From: Stentor roeselii
Lineage: Eukaryota > Ciliophora > Heterotrichea > Heterotrichida > Stentoridae
NCBI GenBank assembly: GCA_006503475.1
Contig: RSEH01000108.1
Span: 1-64,000 of the forward strand
DNA: 64,000 nucleotides
Direction: 5' to 3'
Shown: positions 9,826 to 31,571 of the stretch, piece after piece
Layout: the number at the start of each line of letters is the position of its first letter
Position numbering within the stretch: the stretch's first letter is position 1
The notes under the pieces: model-generated
Seen by the model: the letters and a program-made list of their open reading frames with translations, nothing else
Database searches by the model: none
What the model was told of the DNA's origin: nothing
Program-made: the position numbers and the translations under genes

Positions 9826-12800
9826 ATGGATAACTCCGAATCCTTTTCTCTCGACTCCAACCTTCCACATTCCTTCTTCTCCAGTTTTTCGTCAACTTTC
9901 TCAACAACATCAACCTGGAAGCCCCTTTTAACTTCCTTACAAGAGAACCAGCGTTTAAACCGTTTGATTCAAGTGCGAGAGACCAGGCTTCAAGAGCTTT
10001 CTTCAAACACGAACATTCCAGTCCACTCTCGTCTTTCAAGCGGTCCATTCAACGAGGACCTTGGAGGTTGCGAGCAGGACCGTCTGTCTGAAATTCTTCA
10101 TTTAAGCCAGAAGAACCTGAAAATTCTTTCATTTAAAGTCGGGACTCTTCCCAACAACCTTCTGAAAGCGATTGACTTAGTCCTTGACGATCCTATTTCA
10201 ATGACAACAACTCAAAAAATCGAATGTTTATCAGCTATTGAACTTTTGAGGGAAAAACTGTCAGAAATGGTTCTCAACTCTGAAGAAATTCTCAGCTTTT
10301 TTAAAGATATTGCACTTGAATGTGAAGCATCTGCTGGTAACTTTAAAAGTGGTCAGGAAGGACTTCTTCTTTTTGCTGATAAAAGAGAAGAAATTTTCTT
10401 GTCGAAAGACTTGAATAGGGTTAAAATACAGAATTTACATCGACTTGTGATGAACTTGGAAAGCTGGAAAAGACGAAAGGGGATCTTTGTTGAAGAACTT
10501 GATTCTAATTCCAGGATTCAATATGACGAGTGTATTAAAGAAACTATTGAAAAGTTGGGGAAAAAGGAACAAGAAGTCATTGATATTCAAAATCAATTTC
10601 ATTGTAATTTGAATGAACTTCGAGAGAAAGTAAAAAATTTGAAAATTGGACTGAAAAGATTGAGACATTGTGTTGAATTTGAAATGTTTAATACTTGGAG
10701 CTCTTTGATTGGACAAGAGTTTTCAAATGAACCTTCTTGTCACCAGATCATTGGAAAAATCTCGAGTTTTCAGCAGAATGTTCAAGTAAAAAATAAAAAA
10801 ACTAGAAATCGATTCGAAGAGGTTAGAAAAATTGAACTGGACAATAAAAGGTTTTTCTTTTTGAGACTTGGAGAGTTTAAAATGTTTTTAGAAAAGAATT
10901 TTCGATTGGCTTTAACGAAAATTTTAGAACAGGAAAATATTGTCAAACAGGTTCAGGAAAAACTTTATAACACTGAAGTTGAAAGGAACTTTTTTAAGGA
11001 AAAACTGGAAGAAATGACGAAGGAAAAACAAAAGATTCAACAAGAAATGAAAGAAACTTCAAAGTTTTTTCAAGAAGAAATAAAAAAAATTAGAAAATCT
11101 GAAAAAGATAAAAAATTGGAAATTCTTGAAAATGTGAAAAAATTTGTAGGTTGGTTTAAAACCACTCAAAAAGATACTCAGAAAAAATTTTTGCAAATTT
11201 ATAATTTTTTCAGTTATTTCCTGGAAAAATTCGAAAAAATCCTAGAAACTTTAAAGATTTCTAATCAAATTCGACTTGATCATCACAAAACCAAGTCTGA
11301 AATCGATCAAACCCTGATAATTTTTCTCGAAGATCTAAAAAAAGGTCTGAAAAGTTCACTTTTTTCCCTTTTTTCCACAATTCTTTCATTAATAAAATCA
11401 TCGAAATTCCAGATATGTGAAGAAAAAACAGAAATTCAACAAATAGTCTTCAACTTCAGCCAAAATCTGGAAGTTCAAATAAACCAGTTGGGAAAATCCG
11501 GTCTCGACTTGAAAAAACTTGTAAATTTCGTCGACTCCGAAAAGAAAAAAAACGAAAACCTTCTAAAAATCGAAATTTCTGGTCTTAACCTCGAAGTGAA
11601 AAATTTAAACTCACAACTTGCAAGTCTCCAAGAGTCAAAAGAAAAAGTCGAAAACTTACTAAAAACATCTAGAGAAGAATTTTCAGATCATTTTAAGGAC
11701 TTCGAAAAGCAAAAGGCTCAACTTGAATACGAAAAGTCAATTTTAGCTGAAAAACTGATGGAAATCCAAACAAAAATAAAAAAAATTGAAGAACTTTCTC
11801 AAGAAAAAGAAAAAAAACTTCATGAAAAGTTGCTTGAAATTACTGAAAATTTTGAATTTAAGGAGCAAGAGATGAGTCAAAAGTTCGAAGAAATGGAAAA
11901 AGGATTAAAAAAAGATCTTGCATTAAAAGACCAAGTTTTTCATCAAAAATCTGAAGAATTATCTTTTTTGACCTCTGAATTCGAGGAAAACCTTCAATCC
12001 CTAAAAAGTCTTCAACAAAAAGTCTTAAATCTCGAAAAAGAAAACCTAAACCTCAATGAAAATCTAAAAACCCTTTCAACCTCAAACGATTCAAACCTAA
12101 AAAAAATCGACTCCCTTTCCTCCTCCTTAAAATCCGCAAATGATTCCCTAATCCAAAAGTCCTCAGAGCTCTCAGAAACTTCTTCATCCCTTCAAGTCCT
12201 TCAAGAAAAATCCTTAAATCTTTCAAAAGACCTGAGCCAGAAGACTTCTTTACTCGAGTCTCTTTCAAATCATTTGAAAGATCAAGAAAATTTAAACAAA
12301 TCGCTTCATCTCGACTCTCTTCAGAAGACAGAAAAACTGAAAAAAGCGAAAGATTTAGAATCTCGAGTCAAAATTTTAAAACTTTCAAATCAAGAACTTT
12401 TCAGATTTTTCGCTGATTTTCGAGTGGAACTTTCAAGAGACTTGGAAAGTTTTAAAGATTTTGTGGCTTCTTCGAGTCAGGGGCAGGAAGAGCAAAGTTT
12501 AAAAATTCTTGCTTTGGAAAACTGCAATTCACATTTACAAACGGAAAATAGTCGATTAAATGCACTTCTTTTACATCAGCAGGAAGGGAATTGTTGGAAA
12601 AATCAGAGAAATCATGAGAATCGGATGAGAATTATGGGAAAACTTGCGAAGATTAAAAGGAAAACTCGGACTTTTGCACTTGTCTTGGCACATGAAAGAG
12701 GACTTATTAAGGACTTGCATCTTGATTGGATGACTTTTATGAGAAATTCTCTTGAAAACTTTAAAATTATTATTCAATCTTTTCAAGAACTGAAAGTTGT

Positions 12801-15276
12801 AGATGACAAAAAATTTAGAATTGAAATTCAGAAAATCATGAAAGATTCACAAGATAAATGCAGAAATTTTCAAATACAAATAAATGATTTGGTTGAAAAT
12901 ATGACAGAAAAGGAGGAAAAGTTTGAGATATGCAAAAAAGAATTAATGAAAAAACTTGAAAATGTCACAGATGAAAAAAATAAAAATAAGAAAAAATTGG
13001 AAGATTTACAAGTCGTGAATCAACAAATTATGAATGAAACTCTTGAAAATTCCAGGAAATTCAATCAGAATGAACGAGAATTATCAGAAAAATTATTAAA
13101 AAAAGAGCAAGAAAATCAAGAAAACTACAGAAAAATTGAAAATTTGATGAAAGAAAATCAGAATTTAAACCAGGTCCATCTTGAATTCCAAGAAAGGTCT
13201 GAAATGGTTAAAAACGATTTGATTGGAAAAATTCAGTTTTTTGAAGAAAATGAAAAAAAGTTTAATGAAAGTATCGAAAAACTAGAAATGCAAAAATCGA
13301 CTTTTGATGAATTTTTAAATGAATCTGACCAGCCTTCAGCTGAAACTATTAAAAAACTCTTGAATGAAAAAACAGAAATTTTAAAGAATTATGAAACGAA
13401 AGTAAAACAGTTAGAATCGCTTCAAATTGACCTCGAATTTGAAATTTTAAATAAAAATCAATTGAAGACTGCTATTGAAAATTTGAAATCGGAAAATGCT
13501 GAACTTAGGACTCATTCACAGTCACAACAACTTGAGTTAGGCTTCTTGTTAACTGGCAGAAACTTCGCTGAAAAGTTGAACTCTGAAAAAGATGCGATTT
13601 TTAAGGAGAGACTTGAAAAAATTCTGAAAGGATTGACGAGCTTTAGAGAACTTAATAATGTTTTAAGGGCTAATGCCTTGAAATTGTTGTCGAGTTCGTC
13701 ATTTGAAATTGAGGCTTTTAGGATTAAATTGTTTGAACATGTGAGGTTTGATATTTCAAGGATACGCTCTGACTTAGAAGGTCTAATGGACCAATACAAA
13801 GAAGAGCGAGAACTAATCCACTGCAAACTCGATTCAATAAAATCCTCTCTCGACCTGGGGACTGACCTATCGCTTCCAGTAAAAGACTACCTAAAAGACA
13901 ACCAAGAGTCAATCGACGCATTAAACGAGACCTTCGAGCGTTCCTCCCAAGCCTACCAACAAAACATCGAAGAGAACATAAAAAAGGTAGAAGACCTTTG
14001 TGTGAAAGTAGAGTCCTTCCGTGTGAAAGGCTACGACCTTCTCAACAAATACAAGCGAGACTCAGTTCTCGTGGAGACTCAAGACGACATTCAAACAGAC
14101 TACACGAATTTTCTTTCTCTTCCATTACAAGAAGAGTCAAAAGAAATATCCTTTAACTCTTTACCAGCAGAAGACATTTCAACATTCTCATCTTCCAACA
14201 TGCTTCTTTCAAAAATCGACAAACAATCAAAAGCAACAGTACGTCTTCCTCACCTGATAAAAACCCTTGAAAGGTACTTGAATAATAAATATAAAGACGA
14301 CCTTGCAGCTTTGGAAAAAGGGAATAATCCTCTTCCAATGCAAGAATATATTTATCAGTCACTTTTCAATGAGTCTCAACTCCTGGCAGATAAGAAGTTG
14401 ACAGAACTGATGAATACTTTAAAAGAAAATCAACATGATAGAAGAATTAAGCTTTACTGTCGATTGTTGCAGGTTTATGACCCGAACCCTATTAGTTATA
14501 AGCTCAGCCTTTATATTATTCAAATGAGAAACGAGTTTAACAGACTTGTGAATAAACAGGTCATTCCCAAGACTCATACGAAGAGAGTTGATGGAATGCA
14601 AGTACTTAATCTTCTTGGAGCTGTTAGGACATTGTTTGGAACTGATGTGGAAACTGGGAAAGTTGTTTTGAAACACTTGAAACCTGAGAATATGTTGAGT
14701 ACTGTTTGGACTATTACGTGTCTTGAGTACTTTTTTTATAAGAATATGGTACCTGATAAGTGCTTTTTAAGTATCACGAAACAAGAGAGTATGACTGAAC
14801 AGGAATTTGTTTCTGGACTTAGCAGACTTGATACTTTTGTTAGTGAGGATGACTTGCAGGAGCTGTTTACCAGTCAATTCACCGGTTTCATTTCTCTTCA
14901 AGAGTTCATGAACTTATTTAACCTAGACTCACTTTTCGAAAGAAACCAAATCTATCTTGTAGACCAGCTCCATTTTTTAAACTCTCTAATCGAAGGTTAC
15001 AACGCGATGCGCATAAGACACTACAAAGAAGTTGAAAAACTAATTCAATCCAAAGGTGGAAGAAAATCAATTTTAACCTGGGAAGAAGCAAATTTTGTCC
15101 TAATAGAACTTGGAAGTAACGCTGATAATGTCTTCGGTTTTTGTGCTGATGTCCCTGCTGCTGAGCTTAAAAAGAAGATATTTGAATTAAATATAGGCGG
15201 AAAGGGAATTGGGTGTTACAATCTTCGAGTTATTAAAGGAATTTCAGACACTGAAGAAATGATTCAGGCTAGGTAG
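9826..15276 (+). CDS. Giant coiled-coil protein with a shared C-terminal domain
   Basis: An 1816-residue protein, the longest frame in the window. Residues 1-90 are Ser-rich. About 95-1380 is nearly continuous Lys/Glu/Leu-rich coiled coil, broken around 880-960. From about 1455 to the end is a compact helical domain rich in aromatics. It has landmarks such as LADKKLTELMNTL, YCRLLQVYDPNPISYKLSLY and ETGKVVLKHL, EF-hand-like helices without proper calcium loops, and a final FELNIGGKGIGCYNL. The next gene carries the same domain with more than half of aligned positions identical by eye, so the two are tandem duplicates. Size and layout suggest a cytoskeletal or cortical fibre protein, but that is inference; I cannot name the domain. 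Confidence 0.85.
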   Translation: MDNSESFSLDSNLPHSFFSSFSSTFSTTSTWKPLLTSLQENQRLNRLIQVRETRLQELSSNTNIPVHSRLSSGPFNEDLGGCEQDRLSEILHLSQKNLKILSFKVGTLPNNLLKAIDLVLDDPISMTTTQKIECLSAIELLREKLSEMVLNSEEILSFFKDIALECEASAGNFKSGQEGLLLFADKREEIFLSKDLNRVKIQNLHRLVMNLESWKRRKGIFVEELDSNSRIQYDECIKETIEKLGKKEQEVIDIQNQFHCNLNELREKVKNLKIGLKRLRHCVEFEMFNTWSSLIGQEFSNEPSCHQIIGKISSFQQNVQVKNKKTRNRFEEVRKIELDNKRFFFLRLGEFKMFLEKNFRLALTKILEQENIVKQVQEKLYNTEVERNFFKEKLEEMTKEKQKIQQEMKETSKFFQEEIKKIRKSEKDKKLEILENVKKFVGWFKTTQKDTQKKFLQIYNFFSYFLEKFEKILETLKISNQIRLDHHKTKSEIDQTLIIFLEDLKKGLKSSLFSLFSTILSLIKSSKFQICEEKTEIQQIVFNFSQNLEVQINQLGKSGLDLKKLVNFVDSEKKKNENLLKIEISGLNLEVKNLNSQLASLQESKEKVENLLKTSREEFSDHFKDFEKQKAQLEYEKSILAEKLMEIQTKIKKIEELSQEKEKKLHEKLLEITENFEFKEQEMSQKFEEMEKGLKKDLALKDQVFHQKSEELSFLTSEFEENLQSLKSLQQKVLNLEKENLNLNENLKTLSTSNDSNLKKIDSLSSSLKSANDSLIQKSSELSETSSSLQVLQEKSLNLSKDLSQKTSLLESLSNHLKDQENLNKSLHLDSLQKTEKLKKAKDLESRVKILKLSNQELFRFFADFRVELSRDLESFKDFVASSSQGQEEQSLKILALENCNSHLQTENSRLNALLLHQQEGNCWKNQRNHENRMRIMGKLAKIKRKTRTFALVLAHERGLIKDLHLDWMTFMRNSLENFKIIIQSFQELKVVDDKKFRIEIQKIMKDSQDKCRNFQIQINDLVENMTEKEEKFEICKKELMKKLENVTDEKNKNKKKLEDLQVVNQQIMNETLENSRKFNQNERELSEKLLKKEQENQENYRKIENLMKENQNLNQVHLEFQERSEMVKNDLIGKIQFFEENEKKFNESIEKLEMQKSTFDEFLNESDQPSAETIKKLLNEKTEILKNYETKVKQLESLQIDLEFEILNKNQLKTAIENLKSENAELRTHSQSQQLELGFLLTGRNFAEKLNSEKDAIFKERLEKILKGLTSFRELNNVLRANALKLLSSSSFEIEAFRIKLFEHVRFDISRIRSDLEGLMDQYKEERELIHCKLDSIKSSLDLGTDLSLPVKDYLKDNQESIDALNETFERSSQAYQQNIEENIKKVEDLCVKVESFRVKGYDLLNKYKRDSVLVETQDDIQTDYTNFLSLPLQEESKEISFNSLPAEDISTFSSSNMLLSKIDKQSKATVRLPHLIKTLERYLNNKYKDDLAALEKGNNPLPMQEYIYQSLFNESQLLADKKLTELMNTLKENQHDRRIKLYCRLLQVYDPNPISYKLSLYIIQMRNEFNRLVNKQVIPKTHTKRVDGMQVLNLLGAVRTLFGTDVETGKVVLKHLKPENMLSTVWTITCLEYFFYKNMVPDKCFLSITKQESMTEQEFVSGLSRLDTFVSEDDLQELFTSQFTGFISLQEFMNLFNLDSLFERNQIYLVDQLHFLNSLIEGYNAMRIRHYKEVEKLIQSKGGRKSILTWEEANFVLIELGSNADNVFGFCADVPAAELKKKIFELNIGGKGIGCYNLRVIKGISDTEEMIQAR

Positions 15277-15307: not shown

Positions 15308-16816
15308 ATGAAAAACAAGAAATTCAAATTTTTGGTAATTTTATCTGGAGCCGCTCTTGCAAAACCTGCTTATTCTTATCTTAAATCTCTTTGGACTGCT
15401 GTTAATAAACAACTTGCAACGCCTCAGATTGATCTTGAAAAACTTAGTCAACTTTTAAATATTCATCAAGATTCAATTGATTCGATCACTGCTAAAATTC
15501 AGGAATTCTCAGATAAATCACAGGCTGAATTGCAGAAAAATGTGAAAAGACTCGAAAAAATGCAAGAAAATCTCTTAAAACTTCAGAAAATTTTTAAGGG
15601 ACGGAATAAAGATTCTATTATTCTGGATTTTCCTGAACTTGAAAGTGAAAATTCGCTTTGTTTTAGTGAATCGCTGGAATTGAGTGAAATTTGTGGAAAT
15701 TCAACTTTTATTGAAGATGATTCAAGATTGTCAGCGAGAAATAATAGGCTTTTAAAGCTTTATAACCCGAAAATCAAGAGTAGTCTTCGATTGCAGTATT
15801 TGAAAAAATCGATTGAGTCGATTTTAAGCAATAAGTTTAAAGATGATCAGACTGCTCTTGAGAGGGCAAAAGAGCCTTTGACTATGCCAGAATACCTCTA
15901 CCAGTCCTTATTCAAAGAATCCCCAGTCCTAGCCGACAAAAAAGTATGCGAAATCCTAAACACCTTCAAAGAGCACCAAAACGACCCTCGAGTTCGTTTC
16001 TACTGCCGCCTTTTCCAAGTCTTCGACGGATCTCCAATAAGCTACAAGTTAAGCCTATACCTGATAAAACTTCGTCATTTCTTCAACATATTCATCTCAA
16101 AGCAAGTGATTCCAGAAGCTTTAAAAAAGCGAGTAGACAAGATGCAAGTGATTGTAATTTTAAAGTCAACCCGGAAATTATTCATCTCAGACCAAGAAAC
16201 AGGTAAAGTCGTTTTAAAGCATCTTCGCCCTGAGTCGATTCCAGTGATCACCTGGACGATAACCTGCCTCGAGTACTACCTTTACTACAAAAACATGCTA
16301 CCAGCCGAGTGCTTTCGGTCAATCAGTCCTGAAGATTCAATCACAGAAGGCGAGTTCATTGAAGGTCTCAGCAAAACTCACGAAACCTTCATCGATTCCA
16401 ATGAACTTGCACAGTTATTCTCTTCTAAGACTGAAGGCTTCATGACTCTTGCTCAGTTCAGTCAGCTTTTTGACTTAGACTCTTTTTTTAAGAGAAATCA
16501 AACACATATGGTCGACCAGGTCCAGTTTTTAAATGCTTTGATTGAAGGGTACTCTTCTATGCGTGTTCGACATTACAAGGAAGTAGAAGTTTTAATAAAC
16601 AGCTTCAAAAAAAATAAACTCAACTTTTCTGAAGCTTTTCATGTAATCAAGTCCTTGGCTCCTGGACTTGACCCGGAGAAAGTTCTTCAGAATGTCGAGG
16701 AAATCTCTGCAAAGGACTTGAGAAAAAAGATTTTTGAACTCAATGTCGCGGGAATGGGAATCGGATGCTATAACTTGAAGAGCATTGAAAGAATTTCAGA
16801 TGTTTTTGATGAGTAG
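15308..16816 (+). CDS. Short paralogue of the giant coiled-coil gene
   Basis: A 502-residue protein lying 31 nt after the giant coiled-coil gene on the same strand. It begins with a short hydrophobic, Ala/Leu-rich segment after MKNKK that could be a weak anchor or signal. A short coiled coil of about 60 residues follows. From about residue 165 it has the same C-terminal domain as the upstream gene, with nearly identical blocks such as ETGKVVLKHL, WTITCLEY and RHYKEVE, and the same ending pattern FELN..GMGIGCYNL. It is probably a duplicate that lost, or never had, the long rod. If the domain is an assembly or binding head, this could be a rod-less regulator or cap; that is inference. Confidence 0.83.
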   Translation: MKNKKFKFLVILSGAALAKPAYSYLKSLWTAVNKQLATPQIDLEKLSQLLNIHQDSIDSITAKIQEFSDKSQAELQKNVKRLEKMQENLLKLQKIFKGRNKDSIILDFPELESENSLCFSESLELSEICGNSTFIEDDSRLSARNNRLLKLYNPKIKSSLRLQYLKKSIESILSNKFKDDQTALERAKEPLTMPEYLYQSLFKESPVLADKKVCEILNTFKEHQNDPRVRFYCRLFQVFDGSPISYKLSLYLIKLRHFFNIFISKQVIPEALKKRVDKMQVIVILKSTRKLFISDQETGKVVLKHLRPESIPVITWTITCLEYYLYYKNMLPAECFRSISPEDSITEGEFIEGLSKTHETFIDSNELAQLFSSKTEGFMTLAQFSQLFDLDSFFKRNQTHMVDQVQFLNALIEGYSSMRVRHYKEVEVLINSFKKNKLNFSEAFHVIKSLAPGLDPEKVLQNVEEISAKDLRKKIFELNVAGMGIGCYNLKSIERISDVFDE

Positions 16817-19955: not shown

Positions 19956-21122
19956 TCACATTAAACTAACTGATTTCTTATGATGACCATTTTGAACAGT
20001 CATGAAAATCCTTTCATCATAAGTATACCCAGCGAACAATGCTTGATTCCCATTCAAGTCAATATTCGGGTCTATCTCATCTTTCCACTCTCCAAGATTC
20101 CTTGGATCGAAGTTGTCTGAAGACCTGGGCACGAAAGGAGACTGCAAAGTCCCTGAGTAAAGCTCTCTCCATGGAAAGTCACGCACCCAAGGATGTTGAC
20201 AGACTTCGCTGAACCCCCCGTTGCCCAGTCTATTCGAAACTTTCCTTTGAATCATTTTATTTGCGAAATCTGCTGCTTCGAGAGACCAGTTCTCTGGAAC
20301 TTCTGAGATTCTAGCCTGCTTTGATAAGATTTGATCTCTGATTTCTTTTCTGTCCCTTCCAATATAAGGTCTTTTCCTCATAATCAATTCATACAAAATA
20401 ATCCCAACAGCAAAATAATCCGCAGCAAACGAGTGATTTTGCCTAAAAATGACTTCAGGAGCCATATACCCAGGAGTTCCAGAAGTATCCTTCGAATTTT
20501 CCGCAACCCATCTTCTCGCAATTCCAAAGTCAGTGATAAACAAATACCCTTTCTCATCAAAAACCAAATTTTCAGGTTTAATATCCCGATGAATGACATT
20601 ATTGCTATGAATGAACTGAAGTCCTAAAACAATGCAACAAATAAAAAACTTTGCTTGAATCTCTGTAAATTTCTTAACTTTCGCAATATGATACCTCAAG
20701 TCCCCTCCATTCTTCAAGTCAAGAACCAAGAACAAATTTTCCCTATCTTGAAACGCGAAATGCATGTTGACAATAAAGTTGCATCTCAAGTTTTCCAATA
20801 TTTCTCTTTCATTCATCACAGAATGAACACTTCGCTTGCTGATCACTCTTAACTTCTGCATTTCTTTCAAAGCGAAAAGAGTTTTGGTCTTTTTTAACTC
20901 GACTTTCCAAACCTTTCCGAAACCTCCTCGGCCGATGGGGTATTGGAAGTTGAAGCTCAGCCTTGAAAGCTGCCCTGTCATGCTGCTTGTGTCTGGACGG
21001 GCTGGAAGGTTGGAACTGATGTGTCGAGAGTGATGGGCTGTTGATGTCCTTTTTGGGATTTTTTTGGAGGAGCTGGATGGTTTGTAGCTCGAGCTGGCTT
21101 TATTTTCTGAGTATCTGTGCAT
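19956..21122 (-). CDS. STK32/YANK-like AGC Ser/Thr kinase
   Basis: A complete protein kinase of 388 residues. A Ser/Lys-rich tail of 50 residues precedes the kinase domain: GRGGFG at 64-69, ATP lysine K86 in FALKEM, catalytic HRD at 178-180, DFG at 198-200 and APE near 221. The segment FIVNMHFAFQD, the LVLDLKNGGDLRYH hinge and the RRPYIGR-like stretch after the F helix resemble the STK32 (YANK) branch of AGC kinases. The C-terminal extension keeps an FVPRSSDNFD stretch but I see no clear hydrophobic motif. The kinase domain is a paralogue of the one in the large protein at 24571. It shares a 38-nt divergent promoter with the next gene. Confidence 0.9.
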   Translation of the reverse strand: MHRYSENKASSSYKPSSSSKKIPKRTSTAHHSRHISSNLPARPDTSSMTGQLSRLSFNFQYPIGRGGFGKVWKVELKKTKTLFALKEMQKLRVISKRSVHSVMNEREILENLRCNFIVNMHFAFQDRENLFLVLDLKNGGDLRYHIAKVKKFTEIQAKFFICCIVLGLQFIHSNNVIHRDIKPENLVFDEKGYLFITDFGIARRWVAENSKDTSGTPGYMAPEVIFRQNHSFAADYFAVGIILYELIMRKRPYIGRDRKEIRDQILSKQARISEVPENWSLEAADFANKMIQRKVSNRLGNGGFSEVCQHPWVRDFPWRELYSGTLQSPFVPRSSDNFDPRNLGEWKDEIDPNIDLNGNQALFAGYTYDERIFMTVQNGHHKKSVSLM

Positions 21123-22621: not shown

Positions 22622-23491
22622 TTACTGAAAAATCCCTGAATGTCTACAACTTTTATGTTTCGTATAAACAGCAATTTCCCTTTCAATCCTTTCAATCTCT
22701 TCAACAAGTTCCTTCTTCCTTTTAACCATTTCATCCATCTGCGAAACTTTCACCTTTTTCAACTTCTTTAAATCCTTAACAGACTTGACCTGAAATCCAT
22801 CTTCACAATGCGCAGCCTGATCAGTTTTCTGTTTAAATCGATTAAGTAAACTTTCATTTAAATCCTGAGCAGTTGCCAAGTTTTCCTTCAAACAATTAAA
22901 AACTTCTAAATTTTCTTCAATATTTTTCTGACCTTCATAGACCTCTTTGGCCAGTTCTTGAAAAATTCTTTCAACGTCAACCATCTGCTGTTCAAGCGGA
23001 CTGACCTTCGCCCTTGCCCTGTTGCAAAGATTTTTCTGTTGTTTGACTTTTTCCAGCAAGGCCAAAAGAGAATGTTTTTCTTCAGACTTATTTGACCCGA
23101 CTTGTTTATTTTCATTTTCCAGTCTTGCTTTAGACTCTTTTATCTGATTTTCAAGGTCTTTAACACGGCCTTGACTTGTTTTCACGTCTTTTTCCAGGCT
23201 TAATAGATTTGATTCAAGTTTTTCTAACATTTGTGACTCAAAAAAAGAACTCAAGGCTGAAGAGTAGCAGTCTTGACAGACTCTTCTTTTTTCAGATACT
23301 TTTCGAGATGAGCACTTTCTGCAGATGTTCCTTTTGCAGAAAAAACAAATTTTACGAGATGCTCGAACAAGTCCTAAAGATCCGAATTCGACGTCGCAGA
23401 TGTGGCAGTTTTTTGGAGGGATGTAGTTTTTAATGTCTTTTATTGGGATGAAGTCGATTTGATCCGGTGGGAAGAATGAAAATCGCTCCAT
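22622..23491 (-). CDS. FYVE-like zinc finger and coiled-coil protein
   Basis: A 289-residue protein. Near the N-terminus is a Cys-rich module with paired motifs CHICDVEFG, CFFCKRNICRKC and CQDC, the layout of a FYVE-related double zinc site, but without the RHHCR basic patch typical of PI3P binding. Residues 85-280 are coiled coil. The frame continues upstream to a TTG, but I choose the ATG at 23489-23491 because TTG starts are not expected in a ciliate nucleus. The gene may encode a membrane-associated or scaffold protein; lipid binding is uncertain. Confidence 0.72.
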   Translation of the reverse strand: MERFSFFPPDQIDFIPIKDIKNYIPPKNCHICDVEFGSLGLVRASRKICFFCKRNICRKCSSRKVSEKRRVCQDCYSSALSSFFESQMLEKLESNLLSLEKDVKTSQGRVKDLENQIKESKARLENENKQVGSNKSEEKHSLLALLEKVKQQKNLCNRARAKVSPLEQQMVDVERIFQELAKEVYEGQKNIEENLEVFNCLKENLATAQDLNESLLNRFKQKTDQAAHCEDGFQVKSVKDLKKLKKVKVSQMDEMVKRKKELVEEIERIEREIAVYTKHKSCRHSGIFQ

Positions 23492-23695
23492 ATATGATGA
23501 ATTAGAGGGAATCAATGGAACAGGTATTAAAAGGTCGGAAGGTGATAGGAGGAAGTTTGATTAATTTTACTTGATTTTAGTTTAAATGATTTTATTGGAT
23601 GAAAGAGGGTTTAAGGGAGTTTAGTATGATGATATAGGATTTTTTATTATTCGAGTAGGGGTTAATTACAGGTTTAATAGATTAATTATTATATA

Positions 23696-24570: not shown

Positions 24571-27500
24571 ATGTTATTTCTACTAGCCTATGTATTTCTA
24601 TTGATATCCCCTACAGTTCACAGCAATAAAAACTGCATAAAGCCCGGCTGTGACTCCTGCATCTCAGGTTTTTCCTACAAAAACACAAGCTGCTTATCAA
24701 TATGTCCTTCATCATTCTCACAAAATTCTAAAACCTGCGAACCATCTTCATCTCTTTCTCTCTTCGAATTAGAATTTTTCAACTTTTTGAATTTTTCAGC
24801 ATCCTCAATAGATTCCTTTCATCATCCTCTGAACCTTCCATTTTCCGAAGAATCGAAGAAAGGTCCTCTCCCAACAAAAACTCAAGGTTTTTACTTTGAA
24901 TCAACAAGTAGCCTAGTCTCAATCAAGTCCTGGACATTATCACCTGACTTCTGCTTTACACTTTTCTTCAAATCATTTAAACCTGGTAAGATTTTCACAA
25001 TTTCTGAAAATTCCTCTATTTTCCTGGAAATTCTTTCAAAAGACTCAAAAGTAGAGATTTTTCTGAATATTTCTAAAAATGATTCATTTTCTCTTCAAAA
25101 AACTGAATTTTCCAGTTCTAGGTTCTGGACAATCTTTACTTTTAAATGCATTCAGTCGAAACTCCACCTGATGCTTTGGAACAACTACGAAAATATTCCT
25201 TTAATCGGCTCTGAATTTCAAATGTCTTCTAATTCCTCCTCATTCCTTCTCGGAGCGTTTGAAAATCCATCATCAAATTCAGAAAATTCTGAAATTTTTC
25301 GAAATTCTCAAAGTTTTCAAGGTTTTTTGTATTACTTCTGCATGAGAAACGACTTAAACTGTTACTACAAAACTTTATCAGCACCCAGTTGTGACCTGTT
25401 CAATTACGTCGACTTATCCTGCAAGCCCTGCGACTTAAAATGTGGAACTTGGCCTTTTTGCACAAGAGAGACTTGCAACGTTTGTTACTCAAGTTCTTGT
25501 CTTGAGTGTTCAGGATACGGTTCCGAGCACTGCAGTTTATGTGAAGATAACTCTTTAGACCAGTGCATAAAAGCTCGAAACTGTGCCAAGGGCAGCGGGT
25601 TTAAATGTGAAGAATGCCTTCAAACTTTTGAACTCGTTGAAGGACTTTGTCTCAGACCTTACTCGAAATTTTTACCGTTAAACGTGAAATTTGATAGAAT
25701 TCAACAGTTCGTTGGAGGAGTTTTTCAGTCAGGTGCAAATGCTTCTACTTTCGCACCTTTTAACCTGCCAGAAAAAGATGACCCGGTTCCTATGAAACAA
25801 AGAGGGTACTTTTTTAATGCCGGGACCTTCATGATGACGAAAAATTTGAACTTGCAACATAAGTTCAGTATTTTTACTTGGATTTCAGTTAATAACTATG
25901 TGAATGTCATACAAACTGAACTTTTTAGCTTGTTTTTTGATGGAATTGCCAGGATTAGGTTAAGAAATTTTGAAGAGTTTAGGTTGTTTATTGTGAATAA
26001 TGACTGCGTGATGGAGGACTGGAAGGCCCTGGGTGTTATTTTAGATTACAGAGAAGGAACCAGCTATTTACATGCAGTTTGCAATTCAAGGGTAATGCTT
26101 AAAGTCCAAGCAAAAGGTTACGCTTTTTATGACTTCAACAACTTCTTCAACATCACAGCTTCCAACTTTTTTTTCCTTTATCAGCTGGTGATTTTACCTT
26201 TTGTTGACTTTGAGTACTGGAAAATTCTTGATATTTGTCAGAAGCCTTTTGATGCGTCTTGTCTTTGGCGACCTGATACGACAGTTTATTTTAATGAAGG
26301 TTTTCAGGAATATGACAAGTGTGATATTACTTGCAAGGCAGGATGTGGGTCTTTTGCAACTTGTAATCAATGCAAATATATTGACTGCTCGGTTTGTGGT
26401 AGTTTTGAGGAAAAATGTCAGAATGGGCAAAAAGTCGATTTTTGTTTGAATGGGTTGAAAATTTCAGAGGATAGGGAAAAATGTTGTGATTTTCGATGTG
26501 GAAATTGTTATGGTGATCGACATTTTTATTGCTTTTCTTGTAGACAAGGGTTTTATTTGGATGGAAATGTTTGCATGGCTTGGTGTCCTACTGAGTTTTT
26601 AATAATTGGAAAAAAATGTGAACCTCCGAAGGATTTTATTGTTTTTTCTATTTTGTTCAATAAAAAAGGAAAAAGACTTAAAAGTAAATCTGTTATTTTT
26701 GATGTGGGAAACAGTTCTGCTGTTTTGAGTAAAGGACGAGGGCTGTTCTTTTCACAAGCAAAATTAAATTCCAGTGAATTTCTGATGTCTTCAGGGTTTT
26801 CTTTAATGCTCTGGGTCAGGGTGAATAAACATGGAAAAATTCTGCAAAAGGGAGATTTTTTGATTGATTCTAATGTTTTTGTGGAATTTTCCAATCATTC
26901 TTTGAAATTTCCTCCTGTTATTTTAAATACCTGGACTTTAATGGTTTTTAATTTTTTTGAATTGAACGGCGCTTATCATGTGGTTCTTAAAAGTCTTTTC
27001 GGACTGATTTCGACGAGTTTATCGAAAAGGACTTGCTTTGAAGATGTCCAGTCTTCTATGGTTCTTGGGTCTGATGATTTTGCTGGATTTATCTGGAAGG
27101 TTTCAATGTTTTCTAAGAATGATTTAAATGGAAGTTATTTTGATGTTTGTTCTGAACGTGTTCATGAAAATTGTTTGTGGGATTGCGACTTTCTTGAATA
27201 TTTTGATGGAAAAAACTGCAAACCTTGCCATGAAAGATGTGAATTTGGATGTGCTAGGCAGAATGATTGTAATGTTTGTAGTGATCCTTATTGTAGTGAT
27301 TGTGTTAGTCTTGATGGAAAGTGTGAATGTAGTGATGGGTATTTTTGGAATGGAGAAAAGTGCCAAGAATGCGATGGAGTTTGCACAATTTGCAAAAAAG
27401 GAAAATGTCTTAAATGTGCAGAAAGCCATAAACTTGTAAACGATTCCTGCATATGTGAAGAAATAAACGGAAAATGCATAAAATGTGATCTAAACTGTCT

Positions 27501-28797
27501 AGAATGTACAGGAAATGCCAAAAACTGTCCAACCCTTAAAACCTCTTCAAACCTTCAAACTCCTGCCTCCCCCTTTGCACAAAACAAATCATTCATAGTT
27601 ATCTGTTCAGATATCTATTCATTTACTCTTCTCTCCCCATTCTTCCCATCTCCCAACTTCTTATCCCCCTCACCTTCTTCTCTACCCTCCTTAAAATCCT
27701 ACCTGACCTTCTCCCCTTCATTCTGCGACTATTTTTCAAACCAATCATCTCTAAACCTGTCCGACTACCTTAAAAACCCTGAAAATTTCCTAAATTTTTT
27801 ACAAAATTCAAAGAAAAATCCTTCAAACTCATTAAAACTCTCAAAAAGCGATTTCGAATTCCTTCAAATAATCGGGCGAGGGTCTTACGGTGAAGTTTGG
27901 GAAGTTCAACACAAAAAGACCCTGAAAACTTTCGCTTTGAAACTAATTCCAAAGTCTCGTCTTTCCAACCCATCAAGAATCCTTTCAAGTAGGCGAGAAA
28001 GAGACCTGTTGATGAGAATGTTTAACAAATTTATAGTGAATTTGCATTTTAGCTTCCAAGATGATTTTTTTCTGTACTTGGTGATGGACTTGATGAAAGG
28101 AGGAAGTTTGAGATTTCATATGTTGAACAGTAGGCTGTTGACTGAAGAAGAGGCAAAGTTCATCATTTGCTCAGTGCTGCTCGGACTGGACTACGTGCAT
28201 CGTCAAGACATTATCCATCAGGACATTAAGCCAGATAACATTCTTTTCAACTTGAAAGGAGAAGTTTTCATCACTGACTTCGGACTTTCCATCCCTTTAT
28301 CATTGTCGAATGAGATTCTTAGTGCAGGAGGAACTTCTGGGTATATATCACCTGAAATCGCTTTTAAGAAGAACAGGACTTTTACTTCTGATTACTTTTC
28401 TGTTGGGGTGATTCTTTATGAATTGATCTTTGAGAGAAAACCTTTTCGAGGAAGAAGCTCGGAATATTACTTGAACCTTAAAACTGTGAACCCGAAAAAT
28501 TTAGAGGCTCATAAAAACTGGACTTTTGAAGCTGTTGACTTTTGTTATCGACTTCTTGAAAAAAATAATAGTCTTAGACTGGGAAGTCAAGGGTTTGAAC
28601 AGGTCAAAGGTCATCCTTGGGTTAGGAAGTTTTCATGGGATTTGATGGAAAAGGGAAAAATTATACCTTTGTTTGTGCCGGTAGAGAAAATGAATTTTGA
28701 TGTGGAGGATATGAGTGTTTGGAATGATGATAGGGGAGAGGTTGATAGGGATATGATGCTCCAGGTCTTTCAAGATTTTAGTTTTGAAAGAGAGTAG
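24571..28797 (+). CDS. Receptor-like protein: Cys-rich and LamG-like modules fused to an STK32-like kinase
   Basis: A 1408-residue single open frame. A signal peptide (first 18 or so residues) leads into a Cys-rich module, then three LamG/concanavalin-like domains (about 95-245, 365-560, 690-850), each followed by Cys-rich furin-like stretches with CxxC spacing. Residues about 995-1085 are Ser/Pro/Phe-rich. The kinase domain spans about 1095-1390: GRGSYG at 1102-1107, ALK lysine, HQD at 1216-1218 in place of HRD, DFG at 1236-1238, then SPE. Its closest relative by eye is the STK32-like kinase at 19956. I see no clean membrane helix between the two halves; the weak candidate is SFIVICSDIYSFTLL. 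This could be a receptor kinase, or two genes fused by annotation or assembly. The catalytic Arg is missing, so activity is uncertain. Confidence 0.8.
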   Translation: MLFLLAYVFLLISPTVHSNKNCIKPGCDSCISGFSYKNTSCLSICPSSFSQNSKTCEPSSSLSLFELEFFNFLNFSASSIDSFHHPLNLPFSEESKKGPLPTKTQGFYFESTSSLVSIKSWTLSPDFCFTLFFKSFKPGKIFTISENSSIFLEILSKDSKVEIFLNISKNDSFSLQKTEFSSSRFWTIFTFKCIQSKLHLMLWNNYENIPLIGSEFQMSSNSSSFLLGAFENPSSNSENSEIFRNSQSFQGFLYYFCMRNDLNCYYKTLSAPSCDLFNYVDLSCKPCDLKCGTWPFCTRETCNVCYSSSCLECSGYGSEHCSLCEDNSLDQCIKARNCAKGSGFKCEECLQTFELVEGLCLRPYSKFLPLNVKFDRIQQFVGGVFQSGANASTFAPFNLPEKDDPVPMKQRGYFFNAGTFMMTKNLNLQHKFSIFTWISVNNYVNVIQTELFSLFFDGIARIRLRNFEEFRLFIVNNDCVMEDWKALGVILDYREGTSYLHAVCNSRVMLKVQAKGYAFYDFNNFFNITASNFFFLYQLVILPFVDFEYWKILDICQKPFDASCLWRPDTTVYFNEGFQEYDKCDITCKAGCGSFATCNQCKYIDCSVCGSFEEKCQNGQKVDFCLNGLKISEDREKCCDFRCGNCYGDRHFYCFSCRQGFYLDGNVCMAWCPTEFLIIGKKCEPPKDFIVFSILFNKKGKRLKSKSVIFDVGNSSAVLSKGRGLFFSQAKLNSSEFLMSSGFSLMLWVRVNKHGKILQKGDFLIDSNVFVEFSNHSLKFPPVILNTWTLMVFNFFELNGAYHVVLKSLFGLISTSLSKRTCFEDVQSSMVLGSDDFAGFIWKVSMFSKNDLNGSYFDVCSERVHENCLWDCDFLEYFDGKNCKPCHERCEFGCARQNDCNVCSDPYCSDCVSLDGKCECSDGYFWNGEKCQECDGVCTICKKGKCLKCAESHKLVNDSCICEEINGKCIKCDLNCLECTGNAKNCPTLKTSSNLQTPASPFAQNKSFIVICSDIYSFTLLSPFFPSPNFLSPSPSSLPSLKSYLTFSPSFCDYFSNQSSLNLSDYLKNPENFLNFLQNSKKNPSNSLKLSKSDFEFLQIIGRGSYGEVWEVQHKKTLKTFALKLIPKSRLSNPSRILSSRRERDLLMRMFNKFIVNLHFSFQDDFFLYLVMDLMKGGSLRFHMLNSRLLTEEEAKFIICSVLLGLDYVHRQDIIHQDIKPDNILFNLKGEVFITDFGLSIPLSLSNEILSAGGTSGYISPEIAFKKNRTFTSDYFSVGVILYELIFERKPFRGRSSEYYLNLKTVNPKNLEAHKNWTFEAVDFCYRLLEKNNSLRLGSQGFEQVKGHPWVRKFSWDLMEKGKIIPLFVPVEKMNFDVEDMSVWNDDRGEVDRDMMLQVFQDFSFERE

Positions 28798-30374: not shown

Positions 30375-31571
30375 CTATTTGCTAACCTCTTCTCTTTCAA
30401 TCATCAGAGCTTTTCTTACTTTCGGTTTCTTCTCAGGTTTCAAAGTCTTGACAAGAATGACTTCAGGAGCTTCTTGAACAATCTTGTCATCCCACTGATG
30501 ATTGACCATCGATGACATGTCGTATCCTAATACAACATCTCCTGGACTTATCCCTTTGCCGAAGTGGCTCCAGATCTTGAAAGAGTTTTCGCCAAATCTT
30601 TCATCATCTGCTCGGGCTACTTCGACGTCGTATCTCCCGTCTTTGGTCTCTTCTATGTCGAGAACGATGAATTGCTTCAGACGGTCGCTGCTGGCATGCA
30701 CGTTGAAAGGGTTTTTCCAGTAGGCTGATGATTTTATTTCGGCTTGATGGAATGTGTTCACGTCCATCACATGGATTTGAGTGGTAACCTTAGTGCAAAG
30801 AACCATCCGTCCCACAGCAGGTAATTTAAAATTACTGATCAAAATAACCAAATCCCCTTTACAAACTTCAGGAATATCAACAACAAAAGTATGTTTATTG
30901 TTATAAATATTCGACTTAGGGTCAATAGAAATAAGTTGTTTCGAGTACTTCACAAATCCAGGAACTTTCGAAGTAACAAAATCAACAAATTTCTTAGCAG
31001 CTGGCTTTTCAACAAACTGAACATCAAATCCATGATCCTTCTGTTTAACAGCCTTAAAGTCTTTATTCGCATTGGCTTCAATGATCTGTTGTTCCAAATG
31101 ATGCAAAGTTTTCATATGTTGAGCCTTTTGACGAATTTGGACCTTGGCAGTCCAAGTGTGAGGCGTGAAGGACTTTTTGCAGTCGTCGCATTGAGTGTCG
31201 TTTACAATGAACTTGACTACGCATTCTTGCTCCATTGTCACGTTTTCAACCTCTTTTTGGACTTTTACTCTCACCAGAAGCCGACGGGAATGAGGCTCGG
31301 TGTAGAGAAAACCTGAATCTACTACTTTTATCTTGCTTAAGTTCTTTATTCGTGTCAGGCAGATGCTTAGAAGCTCGGATGACTCAAGCTTTGCTGCAAG
31401 CCATGGAGGTCGGTTGTATCTTTCACAGTATCGGCAGATCTCGATTGTTTGGTCTTTTTCTAGGTTTTCGGTTAGGTTTACACGTGTTTGCAGGCAGTTT
31501 ATGCACATCTTTGATGGGTTGTAGGTAGTGGATGAACCACAGAGACAACAAAGGATTTTTACTTGATCCAT
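30375..31571 (-). CDS. NMD3: 60S ribosome export adaptor NMD3
   Basis: A 398-residue orthologue of NMD3, which links the pre-60S subunit to the export receptor CRM1. The N-terminus has the family's zinc-binding Cys pairs (LCCLC, then CINC, then CRYC near NRPP, and DTQCDDCKKSF), followed by the conserved core with QIRQKAQHMKTLHHLEQ, DGFDVQF and KYSKQLIS. It is shorter than human NMD3 (503 residues); the C-terminal tail with export signals is reduced to a basic tail. The start region, including ATG and the next three codons, is duplicated about 56 nt upstream and makes a ten-residue uORF. Confidence 0.92.
   Translation of the reverse strand: MDQVKILCCLCGSSTTYNPSKMCINCLQTRVNLTENLEKDQTIEICRYCERYNRPPWLAAKLESSELLSICLTRIKNLSKIKVVDSGFLYTEPHSRRLLVRVKVQKEVENVTMEQECVVKFIVNDTQCDDCKKSFTPHTWTAKVQIRQKAQHMKTLHHLEQQIIEANANKDFKAVKQKDHGFDVQFVEKPAAKKFVDFVTSKVPGFVKYSKQLISIDPKSNIYNNKHTFVVDIPEVCKGDLVILISNFKLPAVGRMVLCTKVTTQIHVMDVNTFHQAEIKSSAYWKNPFNVHASSDRLKQFIVLDIEETKDGRYDVEVARADDERFGENSFKIWSHFGKGISPGDVVLGYDMSSMVNHQWDDKIVQEAPEVILVKTLKPEKKPKVRKALMIEREEVSK

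What the first reader, a model, noticed from the sequence alone, without database searches (positions are those of the whole stretch)
24571..28797. Receptor-like protein with a cytoplasmic-type STK32 kinase
One frame joins a signal peptide, three LamG-like domains and Cys-rich modules to a kinase of the STK32/YANK type. That kinase branch is otherwise found as soluble enzymes, and a soluble paralogue lies 3.5 kb away. If real, it is a receptor kinase built independently of animal receptor kinases. Two oddities need solving: no clear membrane helix, and HQD in place of HRD. In one shifted frame the 27600-27770 segment is more hydrophobic, which hints at a missed intron or an assembly slip.
Basis: partly seen in the sequence, partly recalled or inferred. 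Interest (0 to 1): 0.75.

Follow-up and report, generated by a model that had tools for sequence, protein, structure and literature searches.

The report
Ciliate surface protein fused to kinase
In a heterotrich ciliate, one gene joins the outer part of a large family of cell-surface proteins to a complete protein kinase in place of the family's membrane part, giving a candidate home-made receptor kinase whose position in the membrane is still unproven.

Summary
Window 24571-28797(+) is one open frame of 1408 codons: signal peptide, three LamG-like beta-sandwiches with Cys-rich modules, a disordered linker and a full AGC-group kinase. Residues ~5-995 belong to a family with 32 other loci here; in the six followed further, more Cys-rich repeats and a multi-span membrane region come next. 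The kinase's 29 best relatives lie in short frames of 337-442 aa. A two-gene reading fails: no in-frame stop before the kinase, no forward ATG between 27515 and 28012, no 15-nt-type intron in the linker. It is not a long-decayed copy: neutral drift of 0.05 changes per site closes the frame in 300 of 300 runs. The shifted hydrophobic frame gains no support as a missed intron. Topology is unsolved: the best candidate helix, 1007-1025, is weak. STK32A is only narrowly the nearest solved AGC kinase. I read the protein as a receptor-like (or else luminal) kinase built from a CRMP-like surface sensor.

The parts
24571..24624 (+). signal peptide, residues 1-18 (cleavage site inferred from the paralogues' V-x-G|N pattern)
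24748..25365 (+). LamG-like beta-sandwich 1, about residues 60-265
25360..25656 (+). Cys-rich module 1, about residues 264-362
   Evidence: invariant Cys columns
25663..26238 (+). LamG-like beta-sandwich 2, about residues 365-556
26236..26622 (+). Cys-rich module 2, about residues 556-684
26638..27150 (+). LamG-like beta-sandwich 3, about residues 690-860
27148..27528 (+). Cys-rich module 3, about residues 860-986; homology to the paralogues ends about here
27529..27840 (+). linker, residues 987-1090, Ser/Leu/Pro/Phe/Asn-rich, mostly predicted disordered, no relative found in the genome
27589..27645 (+). weak hydrophobic stretch, residues 1007-1025, the best candidate membrane anchor after the signal peptide
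   Evidence: KD mean 1.51
27853..28623 (+). AGC-group protein kinase domain, residues 1095-1351, catalytic residues kept
28216..28224 (+). HQD in the catalytic loop, residues 1216-1218
28624..28797 (+). C-terminal tail ending in FQDFSFERE plus stop; lines up with the tail of relatives (e.g. L030 FIGYSFE)
19956..21122 (-). separate paralogous kinase, 388 aa, HRD

Best explanation
Shown: a single open fusion gene in a heterotrich ciliate. Its first ~985 residues are the LamG/Cys-rich outer part of a large CRMP-like family of polytopic surface proteins. What follows in that family (roughly 800-1000 more residues in the six read: further Cys repeats, then membrane spans) is replaced by a ~105-residue, mostly disordered linker and a complete AGC-group kinase. 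Inferred: the protein enters the secretory pathway, is held in the membrane by the weak segment 1007-1025 (perhaps with partners), and works as a type I receptor-like Ser/Thr kinase. The LamG/Cys part would bind a glycan or protein ligand outside, and the kinase would phosphorylate cytosolic substrates, with HQD loosening the usual control by activation-loop phosphate.
For: One open frame. Ectodomain homologous to 32 other loci over residues ~5-995; two or three C-terminal membrane spans by KD in each of the 6 followed further. Kinase complete, with the family-invariant residues, and modelled with high confidence over most of the domain. No stop before the kinase and no forward ATG between 27515 and 28012; starting at 28012 would lose the glycine loop and the ATP-binding lysine. 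No site of the genome's 15-nt intron type (GTAA...TAG, found in 6 of 6 paralogues) in the linker. Linker frame open in 28 of 5000 shuffles. Frame 0 has the best codon score of six in all 150-base windows starting 27450-27800. 0 of 300 neutral runs stay open at 0.05 changes per site. The weak helix lies exactly between outer part and kinase. Precedent: the Tetrahymena LamG protein Mdl1p and nine partners are reported with non-classical membrane helices bearing charged faces (PMC9159632, passages).
Against: The candidate helix is poor: KD mean 1.51 and summed apparent insertion energy +5.7 on a recalled scale, against -2.8 to +1.9 for the best helix of each of six paralogues, though their weaker spans reach +4.6. 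It holds an Asp, AlphaFold leaves it uncoiled, and no Lys or Arg follows for 16 residues. Codon log-odds fall below zero at 27550-27700 in all six frames, and a synonymous-codon test finds no coding signal in the linker, though it hardly separates frames in the ectodomain either. No transcript and no second species could be examined. Both halves sit on very long branches (2.56 and 3.0 against medians 0.40 and 0.29), which could mean relaxed constraint.
Confidence: 0.45

Rival explanations
1. Same fusion gene, but the product is soluble in the secretory pathway: a luminal or secreted kinase that phosphorylates surface or secretory-granule proteins, with the LamG/Cys part tethering it to glycans.
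For: Signal peptide without a convincing membrane helix. The family's membrane region is gone. Sequons in linker (N1057, N1062, and N1005 beside the weak helix) and kinase (3) would be usable in the lumen. Phytophthora is reported to have four kinases with a signal peptide and no membrane domain (PMC3019232, passage).
Against: Sequon and Cys counts of the kinase do not stand out from its relatives (0-4 sequons and 1-6 Cys in 25 rows). Fold and tail are those of AGC kinases. The known secretory kinase Fam20C is of another, atypical family (abstract in listing).
Confidence: 0.3
2. A real but functionally decaying fusion: a one-off rearrangement, lacking membrane anchor and regulatory Arg, recently freed from constraint.
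For: Long end branches of both halves; HQD and GTSGYISPE in place of HRD and GTPGYMAPE; the only copy found in the genome. In the neutral simulation 9 of 300 copies are still open at 0.01 changes per site, so very recent decay is not excluded.
Against: 1408 codons without a stop; 0 of 300 neutral runs remain open at 0.05 changes per site. Family-invariant Cys and kinase residues are kept. No close intact parent of either half was found, as a young accident should have.
Confidence: 0.13
3. Two genes, or an assembly or base-call slip at 27500-27900: a surface-protein gene and a kinase gene wrongly joined.
For: Linker composition unlike the rest; the junction DNA has no second copy to confirm it; another paralogue (L019) shows frame breaks, so slips or pseudogenes exist here.
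Against: No stop for the first gene and no start for the second; chance openness 0.0056; the shifted frame gives no better helix on the insertion scale (+6.0 against +5.7) and scores lower as coding.
Confidence: 0.1

Closest known systems
CRMPs (cysteine repeat modular proteins) of Tetrahymena, Toxoplasma and Plasmodium (PMC9670195, passages seen)
   Same: Signal peptide and a long Cys-rich outer part; reported as surface-exposed proteins with several C-terminal membrane spans, which is also the plan of the six paralogues followed here
   Different: The window protein lacks the membrane spans and ends in a kinase; homology to CRMPs was not tested by sequence
Tetrahymena Mdl1p, a LamG membrane protein of mucocyst docking (PMC9159632, passages seen)
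   Same: Signal sequence, LamG domain, non-classical membrane helix
   Different: 346 aa, one LamG domain, no kinase; not compared by sequence
AGC kinases, nearest solved STK32A/YANK1 (4fr4), MRCK, RSK, GRK, PKC iota, SGK1
   Same: Kinase fold and catalytic residues
   Different: HQD for HRD; fused behind a signal peptide and ectodomain
Oomycete TKL receptor-like kinases (PMC3019232, passages) and Entamoeba transmembrane kinases (PMC2880585, abstract in listing)
   Same: Protist ectodomain-kinase proteins
   Different: The oomycete ones are TKL with membrane spans; the Entamoeba ones have a membrane segment; ectodomains not compared
Stentor kinome with 'novel domain architectures' (Reiff and Marshall 2017; only its title, in a reference list)
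   Same: Heterotrich kinase expansion
   Different: Could not be read; it may or may not list such a fusion

Membership tests
Type I receptor Ser/Thr kinase (as a working kind) | cleavable signal peptide and extracellular ligand-type domains | tested here: met
   by eye, alignment and fold; no signal-peptide program was run
Type I receptor Ser/Thr kinase (as a working kind) | single transmembrane helix between ectodomain and kinase | tested here: inconclusive
   weak segment 1007-1025, below the best paralogue helices; no helix in the model
Type I receptor Ser/Thr kinase (as a working kind) | complete kinase with catalytic residues | tested here: met
   G-loop, K1124, E1143, D1218, N1223, D1236 among the invariant columns
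Type I receptor Ser/Thr kinase (as a working kind) | kinase on the cytosolic side, ligand-controlled | not testable with these tools
   needs topology mapping and assay
STK32/YANK | nearer to STK32 than to other AGC families | tested here: inconclusive
   STK32A first but by small margins; 11th by fold; neighbour kinase nearer GRK1 and PKA
STK32/YANK | canonical HRD catalytic loop | tested here: not met
   HQD
AGC kinase group | AGC-type catalytic domain | tested here: met
   the 60 PDB rows shown of 550 are AGC kinases by name (grouping recalled); family profile likewise (60 of 216 shown)
CRMP-like polytopic surface family (32 other loci here) | homologous LamG/Cys-rich outer part | tested here: met
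   31-35% identity over roughly 700-1000 residues, E down to 1e-158
CRMP-like polytopic surface family (32 other loci here) | C-terminal polytopic membrane domain | tested here: not met
   present in the 6 paralogues followed there, absent in the window protein

The most novel reading that the evidence does not exclude
A receptor kinase of the AGC group: a ciliate built a one-protein sensor-kinase by replacing the membrane domain of a CRMP-like surface protein with an AGC kinase, using a non-classical membrane segment and a non-RD (HQD) catalytic loop. AGC kinases are otherwise soluble or peripheral as far as I recall.
Probability: 0.4. Interest if true: 0.65.

Novelty: new variant of a known kind. 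Interest (0 to 1): 0.5.

Why it matters
If the product spans the membrane, it is an independent invention of a receptor kinase from an AGC enzyme, which would show how such sensor-kinase fusions can arise outside animals and plants and would hint at what the large CRMP-like surface families of ciliates signal to. If it is luminal, it is a secreted AGC kinase, which would be odd in another way. One cDNA and one topology experiment would decide.

Tried and rejected
Missed intron making a membrane helix: the introns seen in this genome are 15 nt GTAA...TAG (6 of 6 paralogues). No such site lies in 27400-27900; the 15-nt GT..AG candidates there (27407, 27497, 27890) and a 14-nt one (27882) lack the pattern, and a 16-nt GTA..TAG at 27293 falls inside a conserved Cys motif. 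Frame slip: the shifted frame has a KD peak of 1.69 but no better insertion energy and a lower coding score, and would need two slips.

Separate kinase gene: no start codon. Origin from the neighbouring kinase 19956-21122: neither shown nor rejected (AU p 0.34 alone, 0.41 with its sister L030, and 0.36 for the HKD group instead); its 42% identity is the highest of 25, range 34-42%. The trees place the long branch differently.

Relatives elsewhere: viral contigs none. Genome contigs gave only two short Cys-motif matches in spirochaete MAGs, not read further. No eukaryote collection was on hand, so presence in other heterotrichs is untested. Linker as a known element: no relative in the genome at E up to 1. 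NCBIfam gave only sub-cut-off bacterial kinase models. Other Cys-rich-kinase fusions: I compared by eye the places of 113 Cys-module matches with the kinase matches listed; only the window gene had both in one frame. Those lists are partial (150 of 347, 135 of 1346 and 116 of 1208 candidates scored).
Full report
The window is G000:C13:1-64000 of a 44.4-Mb genome in 522 contigs. It looks like a heterotrich ciliate by three signs. The right end of C13 carries TGTTAGGG repeats, a permutation of the CCCTAACA reported for Blepharisma (PMC9942806, passages). Introns of 15 nt with GTAA...TAG interrupt the C-terminal region of all six paralogues followed there; the same paper reports mostly 15-16-bp introns. 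Long genes are open under the standard code, which fits Stentor (standard code used for it in PMC9371601, passage) rather than Blepharisma, where UGA is Trp. The species was not identified.

Observation. The frame 24571-28797 (+) encodes 1408 residues without a stop. It starts with a signal peptide (by eye). Pfam sees kinase families only (Pkinase, residues 1095-1351, E 6e-54), but the outer part aligns with 18 paralogues over 1000 residues with 108 invariant columns, 48 of them Cys. Four of 19 aligned members hit Pfam Laminin_G_3, the window member none. The AlphaFold model from that alignment (mean pLDDT 69, pTM 0.51) has three blocks of beta strands. Foldseek's best PDB matches are neurexin 1-alpha LNS1-6 (E 1.7e-12) and laminin LG domains; whole-chain TM-scores are only 0.1-0.3, single beta-neurexin domains reach 0.47-0.49 of the target, and galectins and lectin-type parts of clostridial complexes also match.

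Parentage of the outer part. A search of the whole genome gives 32 other loci matching residues ~2-996 at 31-35% identity, some over a part only; none of these matches goes beyond residue 998. In pairwise BLASTP against 19 of them, 17 alignments end at 981-996 and two run to 1032 and 1036. I followed six of the 32 further: all six go on with more Cys-rich repeats and reach a region with two or three hydrophobic spans (KD 1.6 or more), broken by a 15-nt intron; I did not read every one to its stop codon. Pfam has no significant model for that region in the three scanned. By plan (signal peptide, Cys modules, C-terminal membrane spans) these resemble the CRMPs of alveolates (PMC9670195, passages); this was not tested by sequence. 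The window gene thus keeps the first half of such a protein and has lost its membrane half. Its outer part is the most divergent of the 20 compared (mean identity 31%, others 33-46%).

Parentage of the kinase. Its 29 best relatives in the genome all lie in short open frames of 337-442 aa (four of them with an in-frame stop inside the match). They share an AGC-type catalytic domain, and several the tail, with it. By sequence the nearest solved kinase is STK32A (E 2e-50), just ahead of MRCK, RSK6 and GRK1; with the family profile STK32A leads SGK1 by 1.2e-82 to 7.5e-80; by fold GRK5 and PKC iota come first, STK32A eleventh; the neighbouring paralogue is nearest GRK1. I accept AGC and leave STK32 open. 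Catalytic residues are kept: G-loop, K1124, E1143, D1218, N1223, DFG D1236. HQD replaces HRD; of 28 relatives with a readable motif 25 have HRD and 3 HKD. An Arg-to-Gln change at this place points to a non-RD kinase, not a dead one (recalled kinase biochemistry).

Is it one gene? There is no stop before the kinase, and no ATG in any forward frame between 27515 and 28012, so a separate kinase would lose its ATP-binding lobe. The frame over 27520-27858 is open for 113 codons, which happens in 0.56% of 5000 dinucleotide shuffles, while the other frames have 6 and 3 stops. No candidate of the genome's intron type lies in it. Frame 0 has the best codon score of six in all windows starting 27450-27800, though it falls to about -0.5 at 27550-27600; at 27850, inside the kinase, a minus-strand frame is 0.01 higher. 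Against this, a synonymous-codon test gives no coding signal in the linker (-0.18, against -0.06 and -0.23 in the other frames); that test is weak, since it hardly separates frames in the ectodomain either. The junction occurs once in the genome, apart from three short matches of 76-96 bases inside the kinase part, and the linker has no relative. Neutral simulation of the whole frame leaves 0 of 300 copies open at 0.05 changes per site, 2 of 300 at 0.02 and 9 of 300 at 0.01; the linker alone stays open in 49 of 300 at 0.1 and 8 of 300 at 0.25. The end branches of the two halves are 2.56 and 3.0 changes per site against medians of 0.40 and 0.29. So the frame has been kept under selection for a long time, or its nearer parents are lost. 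Both halves being long is what a shared fused history would give, but does not prove it, and trees flag both as long branches whose place is unsure.

Topology. After the signal peptide the most hydrophobic stretch is 1007-1025, exactly between outer part and kinase. Its KD mean is 1.51 and its summed insertion energy on a recalled biological scale is +5.7; the best helix of each of six paralogues reaches -2.8 to +1.9, their weaker spans up to +4.6, and the signal peptide +4.6. AlphaFold leaves residues 984-1067 disordered, though without related sequences for that stretch. Precedent for poor helices exists: Mdl1p and nine partners in Tetrahymena are reported as having non-classical membrane helices with charged faces (PMC9159632, passages). 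I put 0.45 on a membrane-anchored receptor-like kinase, 0.3 on a luminal or secreted one.

Known or new? Oomycetes are reported to have TKL receptor-like kinases, and Phytophthora four kinases with a signal peptide but no membrane span (PMC3019232, passages); Entamoeba has transmembrane kinases (PMC2880585, abstract in listing). The listings of my ten literature searches (not all aimed at this) showed no AGC kinase behind a LamG/Cys-rich ectodomain, but the library lacks preprints, including the Stentor kinome paper whose title announces novel domain architectures, so I do not claim it is unpublished. I call it a new variant of a known kind.

Noticed in passing
32 loci, e.g. L017 (C466:13-3036), L020 (C1:1740-4757): The LamG/Cys-rich family sits near contig ends: for 19 of the 32 (those with contig length) the median distance to an end is 5.9 kb, reached by random placement in 7 of 10,000 trials. 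Of six contig ends read only C13's right end shows telomere repeats, so this may be subtelomeric or may reflect assembly breaks at repeats.
   Followed up: partly
C386:12232-15243 (L019): A paralogue 78% identical to L015 whose open frame stops after 1067 codons, with related frames resuming later: pseudogene or base-call slips.
   Followed up: no
L056 and L057 (kinases on C231 and C93): Two relatives of the kinase carry MGNC... just before the kinase domain, a possible N-myristoylation start, so some of this kinase family may be membrane-bound by a lipid (by eye).
   Followed up: no
window 9826-15276 and 15308-16816: Neighbouring frames of 1816 and 502 aa look alike in their C-terminal part (KYKDDLAALE... 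and KFKDDQTALE...), as if the tail of a coiled-coil protein was duplicated in tandem (by eye).
   Followed up: no
window 30375-31571 (-): 398-aa frame that looks like the ribosome export factor NMD3 (recalled, not searched).
   Followed up: no
window 22622-23515 (-): 297-aa frame with an N-terminal CxxC-rich zinc finger of FYVE-like spacing (by eye).
   Followed up: no
L036, L044, L049: Three related kinases have HKD in place of HRD and form a supported clade (100/100, 95/98), so this kinase family tolerates changes at that Arg.
   Followed up: partly
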